Part shown: positions 14,266 through 17,602 of the stretch, in pieces
Numbering within the stretch: position 1 is the first letter of the stretch
Layout: every line of letters starts with the position of its first letter
DNA from: Symmetrospora coprosmae
Lineage: Eukaryota; Basidiomycota; Cystobasidiomycetes; Symmetrosporaceae
Assembly (NCBI GenBank): GCA_008802785.1
Contig: VUYT01000034.1
Span: forward strand, 124,001 to 188,000
Reading direction: 5' to 3'
Length of the DNA: 64,000 nucleotides
The notes under the pieces: model-generated
Told to the model about the DNA's origin: nothing
Database searches by the model: none
The model's input: only the letters and a program-made list of their open reading frames with translations
Program-made: the position numbers and the translations under genes

Positions 14266-17200
14266 TTAGCAGATCTGAGTAAGCGAAGGGGGAAGCTCGT
14301 TGATTTTGAGGCGGTAAAAAGATTCGATGGCCCGGAGCATCTCGATATCTTGCGGGCTTGAGACGATATTGACGGACGTTCCGGAGCGGCCGTAGCCAGA
14401 CGATGCGGCGCAGGAGACGCTGGGGTGGACAGAGAGCACAGGCATTGGTCAGCCTCTTCCTCCACGAACACAGGGCATGCTTGCCTCGCTCACCGATGAA
14501 CGTAGTCCTCGACCGAGCGAGGTAGATCGTAGTTGACGACCATGGCTACCTGGTGAATGTCCGACAGCGTCCTGCAAAGGGCATCGTAGACGACGAGCAC
14601 CCTCTTGAGGCCAGCGTGCTGCCCGCGCCCTGGTCCCGGATTGTTGCCGGATCTGAACTTGCTGACGATGGCATGACGAGCCGAGGCGCCCATGTCGCCG
14701 TGCAGGGCGAGCGCGTCGATGTTGCGGCTGACGAGCTTGTACGTGACTGCCTCGACCGCGTCGATCGACGAGCAGTACACGACGCCCTGCGCAAAGTCCG
14801 CGTCCGCGCACAGGTCGGCGAGCGCCTCGAGCTTCCACTCGCGAGTCGCGGAATTCATTTCCTGCCGCCCAGCCCCGCCTGGCCCGCGGCCGCCTGCACC
14901 ATTGCCCATGGCAAGATACAGGAAAAAGTGCTTCATGCTGCGGAGGTTGGGCGCTTGCTGCTGCGACGATGTGTCGCTCTGGTTGTTCTCGCGCCTGACG
15001 AGCACGCGGACGGGCTCTCGGAGATTGAGCGCAGAGGCAAAATTGAGCACTTCCTGCGGACTCCAGAAGGGTGAAGGGGTGAGCAAAGTCAGTAAGAGCG
15101 GGACCACATCAGTGAAGAGCAGAACGACGCACACTGTGCACGAGAAGATGGCAGTCTGCCTTTCTTGCGAGCGAGTCGGCGATGTTGCCGCCGGCTCAAA
15201 TGGCTTGAAGCCGTTCGCGCCAGGTGCGGGCGAGCGCTCTCTGCTGGACGCTGCTCCCGAGATGGGCGGCGGGAGGAGTCTCGCGAGGTTGTTGACGTAC
15301 TCGGACAGGTTGCGCGCGATGAGCTGGTCCATCTCGTCGATGATGAGGAGCGAGAGGCGATCGGTGGGGATGGACCGGATGCTGAGGAGATCGAGGAGCT
15401 TTTGCGGGGTCCCGACAAGGATGTGCGGCGGATTGGCCGAGAGCTGCGCTAGCTCGGACGAGACGTCACCCTGTCCGACGACGAGAGACGATGAGATGCC
15501 TAGGCTCTGGCCAAGACCAAGGCACATGCGCTGTGCCTGCCCGGCCTGGTCGATGGTGGCCGTGAGGATGAGGACCTGGACGCCTTTAGGCGGCTGCTGT
15601 GGCGGCAGCTCCATGCTGTCGCTAAGGTTGGTCAGGCCAGACGATGAAATGGCCGTGTAGACGTGTTGCAGGGCGGGGATGACCTGTTTGAAGTGCGCGC
15701 AGGGCCGTCGATGTCAGCTTGCCTCGGGTCTGAGAGATTGCACATGCATGAGACCTCACTCACATAGCATTGGATTCGTTCCTGAATTGAGCTGGCCTGC
15801 GCGACGATGTCTTGGGTGTTGAGGACGCACGGGATGGCCTTCATCTGAATCTTGCTCGGCGGCCCGATCCCGTACTTGATGATGGCACGCAGCAGGTCGC
15901 CCGACACTCCCAGGGCTTCCCACTTGCCCAGCAAGCTCTGGTTGCCCATGCCTCCCGGCCCTCCTGCTCCAGTAGGCAACCCCTCGGCTACATTGTGCAT
16001 GTTCTCGACAATGTCGGCAGAGTGCCGCCGGCTGCCCATGCCCATGGGCGTGGGCGCCTGCAGGGTGAGATGCGAGCGCTTGCGGGCCTCACGCTCCTCA
16101 GCGTAGGCAGCTGCGGCGGCGGCGCCAGCTGCTGTGCCTCGAGGCAGAGCAGCTCCGCGCGGGATGTCGTAGCTCGCTGTCCGGAGGTTCGAAAGGTTGG
16201 GCCGCCCAAGAGGATGTTGCGGGCCAAGACCGAGCGCCGAGACCGGGTGGTGCTCGTAGATGGCGGAGCCGGGCGCACTGCCAGGCGTCTGAGGCGGAAG
16301 CTGCTGTTGCTGCTGCTGAGCAGCCATGAGGTGTGCCACATTGTTGCCGAGCGCGGACATCTGCGCAGTGAGCTGTCGTATGACGTCTGTGCTGACTGTG
16401 CTGGCGTTGCCGCTGTCCGGACCGGCAGTCGAGTGTGACAGAGAGGGCGAGTGCATGCCGGAAGAAGCGGCCGACCCTGCGGTGGGAATCAGCAGGCTGT
16501 GCGGCCGGCTGCCCAGTGCGGTGAGATAATTGGACGACGGTGCTACGCTGGGCGAGCGAGTGGGCGTGACATCGAAAGATGGACCGTGAGCAGACTGGTG
16601 GCTCATCATGGCATGAACGTGCTGTTCCAGTGCCCCGATGCGGCTGAGCAGATCCTGGAAGACGTTGCTGCTTTTGAGCATGGCGTCGAAAGCCGACTCG
16701 AGCTCGGACGAGCTGGACGACATTGTGGCGCTGATATCATTCTGGTGCTGCTGCTGCTGTTGCTGTTGCCGCTGATTCGAGGGAGGAGTCGAGCTGTCGA
16801 AATGCAAGGTCGGGTTACCACTGGCAGAGTTGGCCGACTGGCTAGGGTTGAAGGCCGAGGAAGGCGCCTGCTGGTAGAACGAAGGCGATGGGACGCCAGT
16901 GGGGGACCTGTGCGATGCTCCGGTGGTGACTGCAGGCGAAGCGGGCCTTGATGAAGGGACAGAGTAGGCTTCTGTGATGTAGCGGCGCTCGCTGCCGATA
17001 GTCGACAAGCCTGTTGTGGACGACGAGCGCGATTGGAGGCCAGAGTGAGTTCCGCCATAGTGAGGGTGAGGATGAGGATGCGCATCATCGAGGAGGTTCC
17101 GCGCACTCGCTCCTCCTGCTCCTAATGCTCCAATCTTGCCGAGGATGGGCGGGAACCAGTCCTGCTGTCCGCCTGCGAGGCTGGTGTTGACGGATGGAGG

Positions 17201-17602
17201 TCCTGCTGCTGCGTGGCCAGAGGAAGATGCAGAGGGAGGTCCGCTGCTCGCACTGACGCTCCTCTGGCTGCCAATTGCTCCACTAGCACCCGGCAGTCCT
17301 CCCTTGCGCGCAGATAGATGCTGTCCTCCTGCTGGACCGCCCCAAGGGCTCGTTGGCGTCGACGGACCTGGAGTAGACGGCTTGCTCCCAATCACTCCGA
17401 CGCCGCCGCCGCCGCCGCTGCCCCCAATGCTACCATTGCTGTTGCTCTGGTTGCTGCTGCTCGCTGTGCTGTGCGTGCTCCCTGCCGTTTGCTGGTGCTG
17501 ATGCTGGTGCTGGTGCTGGTGCTGATGAGGATAGCCATGGCCGCCCTCGCTGCTCTCCCTCGGCGTGTACGAGGTCGGCGAGGTCGTCACGCCATTGTCC
17601 AT
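14266..17602 (-). CDS. catalytically degenerate eIF4A-like DEAD-box protein
   Basis: Four exons (15764-17602, 15135-15683, 14494-15053, 14266-14419) encode 1,033 residues with consistent phases and no stops. Residues 1-550 are disordered, rich in Ser, Gly, Pro, His and Gln (poly-HQ near residue 30, poly-Gln near 290). An eIF4A-like helicase fold follows from about 558. The Q motif survives (PPSKIQMKAI), but the catalytic motifs do not. Walker A, normally AQSGTGKT, reads AQASSIQERI; PTRELA reads TATIDQA; TPGR reads TPQK; DEAD reads DEMD (about 729-732); SAT reads SCT; motif V reads VVYDALCRTLSDIHQ; motif VI, normally HRIGRGGRFGR, reads HRVSCAASSGYGR. Structural landmarks such as ALHGDMGASARHAIVSKFRSG remain. 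I infer a pseudo-enzyme, possibly an RNA or eIF4G binding scaffold. The intact long frame argues for a working gene. Confidence 0.8.

What the first reader, a model, noticed from the sequence alone, without database searches (positions are those of the whole stretch)
14266..17602. A 1,033-residue DEAD-box pseudo-helicase with every catalytic motif degraded but the fold retained
Walker A lacks Gly-Lys-Thr (AQASSIQERI), DEAD is DEMD, SAT is SCT, PTRELA is TATIDQA, and motif VI arginines are altered (HRVSCAASSGYGR). The Q motif and many structural residues remain. A long disordered Ser/Gly/Gln-rich N-terminus has been added. The frame is open for more than 3 kb, so this is unlikely to be a dead gene. 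It could be a regulatory decoy for eIF4A partners such as eIF4G or Pdcd4-like factors.
Basis: partly seen in the sequence, partly recalled or inferred. Interest (0 to 1): 0.75.

Follow-up and report, generated by a model that had tools for sequence, protein, structure and literature searches.

The report
Conserved dead helicase in basidiomycete fungi
Mushroom, rust, smut and yeast-like basidiomycete fungi carry a relative of the translation helicase eIF4A whose ATP-using site was replaced by a different, strictly conserved sequence, so it is a kept protein and not a decaying gene, probably acting as a scaffold on messenger RNAs rather than as an enzyme.

Summary

Best mechanism: an ATP-independent mRNP/translation scaffold. 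Hints: a PAM2-like (poly(A)-binding-protein) motif in 78 of 252 homologues but not in the window protein, and three of five eIF4G-contact positions kept in most cores. The eIF4G-decoy idea is possible but unproven. No dN/dS or transcript test was possible.

The parts
15764..17602 (-). exon 1 (1839 nt): N-terminal tail, Q motif, degenerate motif I
   Evidence: gene model
15133..15683 (-). exon 2 (551 nt): rest of domain 1, motifs Ia, Ib, II and start of III
   Evidence: gene model
14494..15060 (-). exon 3 (567 nt): end of motif III, domain 2 motifs IV-V, start of VI
   Evidence: gene model
14266..14419 (-). exon 4 (154 nt incl. stop): rest of motif VI and C-terminus
   Evidence: gene model
15684..15763 (-). 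intron 1, 80 nt, GT-AG
15061..15132 (-). intron 2, 72 nt, GT-AG
14420..14493 (-). intron 3, 74 nt, GT-AG
15950..17602 (-). low-complexity N-terminal tail (residues 1-551), S/G/A/P/Q rich
16604..16708 (-). leucine-rich, heptad-like segment 1 (residues 299-333), judged by eye; no coil predictor was run
   Evidence: alignment with seven relatives
16328..16372 (-). heptad-like segment 2, LTAQMSALGNNVAHL (residues 411-425); pattern in 80 of 156 N-termini (window's included), shuffles mean 0.0, max 1
16010..16183 (-). three basophilic-kinase-like sites RTAS, RKRS, RRHS before the core
   Evidence: loose patterns in the last 230 tail residues: 152, 95 and 106 of 156 N-termini against shuffled means 92.5, 3.9, 28.2; the kinase is inferred
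15845..15877 (-). Q-motif region KYGIGPPSKIQ, Gln kept
15764..15802 (-). degenerate motif I (Walker A) AQASSIQERIQCY; GKT replaced by ERI
15543..15563 (-). degenerate motif Ia TATIDQA
15399..15413 (-). degenerate motif Ib GTPQK
15321..15338 (-). motif II DEMDQL (DExD kept; QL family-specific)
15057..15143 (-). motif III SCTVP, split by intron 2
14559..14594 (-). degenerate motif V VVYDALCRTLSD
14380..14498 (-). degenerate motif VI HRVSCAASSGYGRSG, split by intron 3

Best explanation
The gene encodes a member of a Basidiomycota-wide pseudohelicase family that split from the eIF4A/eIF4AIII branch of DEAD-box proteins. Shown: the two RecA domains are kept, the ATP-binding residues and the second and third motif VI arginines are replaced in every aligned member, and the Walker A replacements are fixed, so most simply they predate the split of the three subphyla. 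Inferred: the former ATP cleft of domain 1 now holds a stable, nucleotide-independent shape (the Lys-to-Arg and neighbouring Glu may pair with the retained DExD acids), and the protein works as an mRNP/translation scaffold. Its tail would recruit mRNA-bound partners (poly(A)-binding protein through PAM2 in many members) and be tuned by phosphorylation, while domain 2 may bind a MIF4G-type protein such as eIF4G without any ATP-driven cycle.
Against: No binding partner, expression or phenotype is known. The window protein has no strict or looser PAM2 match and no acidic residue at the E268 position. The PAM2 sequences are related, so the shuffle control overstates independence; they have Ser for the usual Ala and Pro for the usual Glu; and in U. 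maydis the PAM2 motif of Upa1 was dispensable for its function (PMC4466420, passages). The kept eIF4G-contact residues could be shared ancestry. Domain arrangement in the model is uncertain (pTM 0.58). The ATP-free cleft geometry was not seen: no coordinates were among the files.
Confidence: 0.55

Rival explanations
1. Competitive decoy: it occupies eIF4G in place of eIF4A and so represses cap-dependent initiation.
For: Three of five contact positions (R45, D265, an acid at E268) are kept in 171, 167 and 175 of 182 cores; among the own-genome DEAD loci where both acidic positions could be read, only eIF4A and its closest paralogue keep both. Contacts from PMC7470955 (passages).
Against: D296 is Gly in 146 of 182 and not acidic among the six commonest letters; T298 is Glu or Asp in 181 of 182, likely to disturb that contact; the window protein has E268 to Ala. 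eIF4AIII keeps the same triad in the presumed own copy yet serves other partners (recalled).
Confidence: 0.2
2. Structural part of another machine, such as ribosome assembly or the exon junction/spliceosome, in the way that Utp25 is.
For: Utp25 is an essential pseudohelicase with a disordered N-terminus (PMC9539457, abstract and part 1 of 2 of its Description); by sequence the family is about as close to eIF4AIII as to eIF4A (1.5e-46 against 3.4e-48), and it lies outside both in the tree.
Against: Tail motifs resembling PAM2 point to cytoplasmic poly(A)-binding protein.
Confidence: 0.15
3. ATP-independent RNA clamp that still binds RNA across the two domains.
For: TP of motif Ib is kept in 182 of 182 with a basic residue at the Arg position (K or R in 181).
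Against: Motif Ia Arg is lost in 182 of 182, and of the two motif V threonines one is kept in 1 and the other in 0 of 182; without ATP the closed, RNA-gripping state is not expected (established DEAD-box mechanism, recalled).
Confidence: 0.07
4. A decaying pseudogene of eIF4A.
For: Motif losses alone would fit.
Against: Open frame, fixed replacement residues in 182 of 182, first domain better conserved than tail. A truly decaying eIF4A copy lies nearby at 20084-20840 and looks quite different: scattered motif losses, a frame break, no domain 2.
Confidence: 0.02

Closest known systems
eIF4A (DDX2; yeast Tif1/2)
   Same: Two-RecA fold, best structural match, R45/D265/E268-type contact residues kept in most members
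   Different: No Walker A, no second or third motif VI arginine, usually a long N-terminal tail; separate clade; true eIF4A also present in this window
eIF4AIII / FAL1
   Same: Almost equal sequence similarity to the solved human protein; same triad kept in the presumed own copy L010
   Different: Active-site motifs lost; not nested with L010 in the tree
Utp25/Def, proposed as the first fully validated pseudohelicase (PMC9539457)
   Same: Catalytically dead DEAD-box fold with disordered N-terminus
   Different: Different family: the Pfam scan lists only DEAD and Helicase_C above cut-off; by that paper Utp25 lacks the DEAD sequence and shows motif Ia, whereas here DExD is kept and Ia is changed; Utp25 is shared by yeast and human
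PAM2-bearing mRNP proteins of basidiomycetes (Upa1, Upa2)
   Same: Short PAM2 motif in the tail in many members
   Different: Upa1 is described with ankyrin repeats, FYVE and RING, no helicase core (passages); the window member lacks a strict PAM2

Membership tests
DEAD-box protein fold (SF2) | Pfam DEAD and Helicase_C domains | tested here: met
   60.9 and 44.5 bits, both over cut-off
DEAD-box protein fold (SF2) | tandem RecA fold | tested here: met
active DEAD-box helicase | Walker A GxGKT | tested here: not met
   ERI in 182 of 182
active DEAD-box helicase | DExD motif II | tested here: met
   D, E, D in 181, 181, 182 of 182
active DEAD-box helicase | motif VI arginines HRxGRxxR | tested here: not met
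   first Arg kept in 178, second and third in 0 of 182; an Arg three places further on is kept in 144
active DEAD-box helicase | ATPase and unwinding activity | not testable with these tools
   needs purified protein
eIF4A | groups with eIF4A in a tree | tested here: not met
   separate clade 100/100 beside own eIF4A, L010 and L013; one species' paralogues only
eIF4G-binding DEAD-box protein | five contact positions R45, D265, E268, D296, T298 | tested here: inconclusive
   three mostly kept, two changed; window lacks E268
pseudohelicase | helicase fold with lost catalytic motifs, conserved | tested here: met
pseudohelicase | demonstrated function without catalysis | not testable with these tools
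   no phenotype data
Utp25 | UTP25 profile match | tested here: not met
   not among the three families listed up to E 1
PAM2 protein | xxLNxxAxEFxP consensus (PMC4466420, PMC9249222, passages) | tested here: not met
   pattern [LFM]N..[AS]..F.P in 78 of 252 homologues but no match in the window protein, also none at the looser pattern

The most novel reading that the evidence does not exclude
Basidiomycota evolved, before their main split, a catalytically dead eIF4A look-alike that ties poly(A)-binding protein (PAM2 tail) to eIF4G (domain 2) without ATP: a phylum-specific, phosphorylation-tuned brake or adaptor of translation built from an initiation-factor helicase.
Probability: 0.25. Interest if true: 0.82.

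Novelty: new variant of a known kind. Interest (0 to 1): 0.64.

Why it matters
Validated pseudohelicases are few; PMC9539457 proposes Utp25 as the first fully validated one. A family kept across a whole fungal phylum, with the dead active site inside its most conserved region, makes the question 'what does a helicase fold do without ATP' testable in easy fungi. It also shows that many database entries named 'RNA helicase', 'ATP-dependent RNA helicase' or 'translation initiation factor' are very unlikely to be active helicases.

Tried and rejected
Rejected: decayed pseudogene; sequencing or splicing artefact (introns are GT-AG, junctions join motifs III and VI in register); Pdcd4 as target, for want of any support.

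Led nowhere: eight paper searches for a named basidiomycete eIF4A paralogue or pseudohelicase listed no paper whose title or shown abstract describes this family; two searches were used for PAM2 and eIF4G contacts. The library lacks most subscription papers. Presence outside Basidiomycota could not be judged: each protein search lists only its best 120 of 660, 897 and 514 hits; the listed hits with a species name are basidiomycetes by my recall of taxonomy (four looked up). RRM domains listed for five members (Tulasnella, Amanita, Arthromyces) look like fused gene models, since in four of the five a Met plus PAM2 start lies inside. A PAM2 equivalent in the window protein was sought and not found. 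dN/dS: no relative's coding DNA could be fetched. Model coordinates were not among the files, so the cleft was not inspected. The looser RxxS pattern is nearly as common in shuffled tails (152 against 92.5 of 156) and says little.

Rows dropped: 42 of 223 homologues left out of the core alignment for incomplete cover; the structure alignment held 70 of the 223; the 29 proteins new were used only in pattern counts and one (P0224) in the tree. One search reports 247 motif matches; one more (P0215) was seen. The PAM2 shuffle control used the 138 N-termini of at least 200 aa then at hand, the window's included.

Full report
What is there. The minus strand carries a four-exon gene from ATG 17602 to a stop ending at 14266, with GT-AG introns of 80, 72 and 74 nt and a 1,036-residue product. 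Residues 1-551 are low in complexity (S, G, A, P, Q); residues 552-1036 match Pfam DEAD and Helicase_C above their cut-offs. By sequence the nearest solved proteins are eIF4A-I (3.4e-48) and eIF4AIII (1.5e-46). I saw no second copy: outside its own exons the next match in the genome is 38% identical.

A built-in control. The window also holds this fungus's true eIF4A, with AQAQSGTGKT, PTRELA, DEAD, SAT and HRIGRGGR intact (31824-33429, plus strand). At 20084-20840 lies a second eIF4A copy that really is decaying: 61% identical over its best exon, scattered motif losses, a frame break, an early stop and no second domain. By eye its introns sit where the first two of the true gene do. The contrast makes the pseudogene reading of 14266-17602 untenable.

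Conservation. Three protein searches returned 252 different proteins from lists capped at 120 each. The named ones span Pucciniomycotina, Ustilaginomycotina and Agaricomycotina (four species looked up; the rest by recall). I aligned the window core and 181 of 223 homologues from the first two searches to the window's own eIF4A. GKT of Walker A is E (182), R (182), I (182). Motif Ia Arg is lost in 182 and the following Glu is Asp in 182. The A of SAT is Asn or Cys in 181. The second and third motif VI arginines are lost in 182; the first is kept in 178 and an Arg three places further on in 144. D, E and D of DExD stay in 181, 181 and 182, followed by a family-specific Gln-Leu in 182. In all 252 proteins, 248 carry the ERI form, 4 lack the segment, and none has AxxGxGKT. 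Of the 380 columns of own eIF4A, 56 are near-invariant in the family; 24 of those differ from eIF4A, and 44 lie in the first 216 columns. So the dead site sits in the best-kept part of a core that is only 24-35% identical to eIF4A. Against the closest relative (a metagenome protein, P0108) the first domain is 85% identical and the tail 56%, gaps left out; BLASTP gives 77% over the matching stretch.

Hints of function. (1) PAM2. A strict pattern fitting the consensus xxLNxxAxEFxP (PMC4466420 and PMC9249222, passages read) occurs in 69 of 138 N-termini against 0.28 in shuffled sequences, mostly LNPASxPFFP or close to it within some ten residues of the start in mushrooms, and also in Phakopsora (residue 16) and Mixia (residue 298). 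Position 5 is usually Ser instead of Ala and the usual Glu is Pro. The window protein has none. (2) eIF4G contacts. PMC7470955 (passages) names R45, D265, E268, D296 and T298 of human eIF4A1. The family keeps R in 171, D in 167 and an acid in 175 of 182, loses D296 and makes T298 acidic in 181; among own-genome loci where both could be read only eIF4A and its nearest paralogue keep acids at D265 and E268. The window protein has Ala at E268. (3) Sites RTAS, RKRS and RRHS precede the core; the RKRS-type and RRxS patterns occur in 95 and 106 of 156 N-termini against shuffled means of 3.9 and 28.2, while the looser RxxS pattern (152 against 92.5) says little. The kinase is my inference.

Reading. 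Shown: a conserved DEAD-box family in Basidiomycota whose ATP-site residues are replaced; that it is catalytically dead follows from established knowledge of those residues, not from an assay. Inferred: it acts as a protein scaffold in mRNP or translation control. Nothing here tests expression, ATP binding or partners.

Known or new. Utp25 is the published precedent for a pseudohelicase (PMC9539457, abstract and part 1 of 2 of its Description), but it belongs to another family. Eight searches of an open-licence paper library (I saw listings and starts of abstracts) showed no description of this family; papers outside that library, or unlisted ones, may hold one.

Noticed in passing
20084-20840 (+): Broken, truncated eIF4A copy (frame break near 20730, stop near 20840, no second RecA domain) with its introns where the first two of the true gene lie: a DNA duplicate in decay.
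   Followed up: partly
31824-33429 (+): This fungus's intact eIF4A gene, six exons from the NWDQV stretch on; its start codon and N-terminus were not worked out.
   Followed up: partly
P0027, P0032, P0043, P0079, P0088: Homologues listed with an N-terminal RRM domain; four of these five have a Met plus PAM2-like start inside, so they look like two neighbouring genes fused in annotation.
   Followed up: partly
own genome C55:179213-181029: Gene that looks like eIF4G (by eye) with MIF4G followed by an MA3 domain.
   Followed up: no
11478-13732 (+) and 18245-19260 (-): Neighbouring frames look by eye like Spt16 (FACT) and a GPN-loop GTPase (recalled, no family search; frames).
   Followed up: no
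Members of this family are named RNA helicase, ATP-dependent RNA helicase or translation initiation factor in public databases although they lack a Walker A motif.
   Followed up: no
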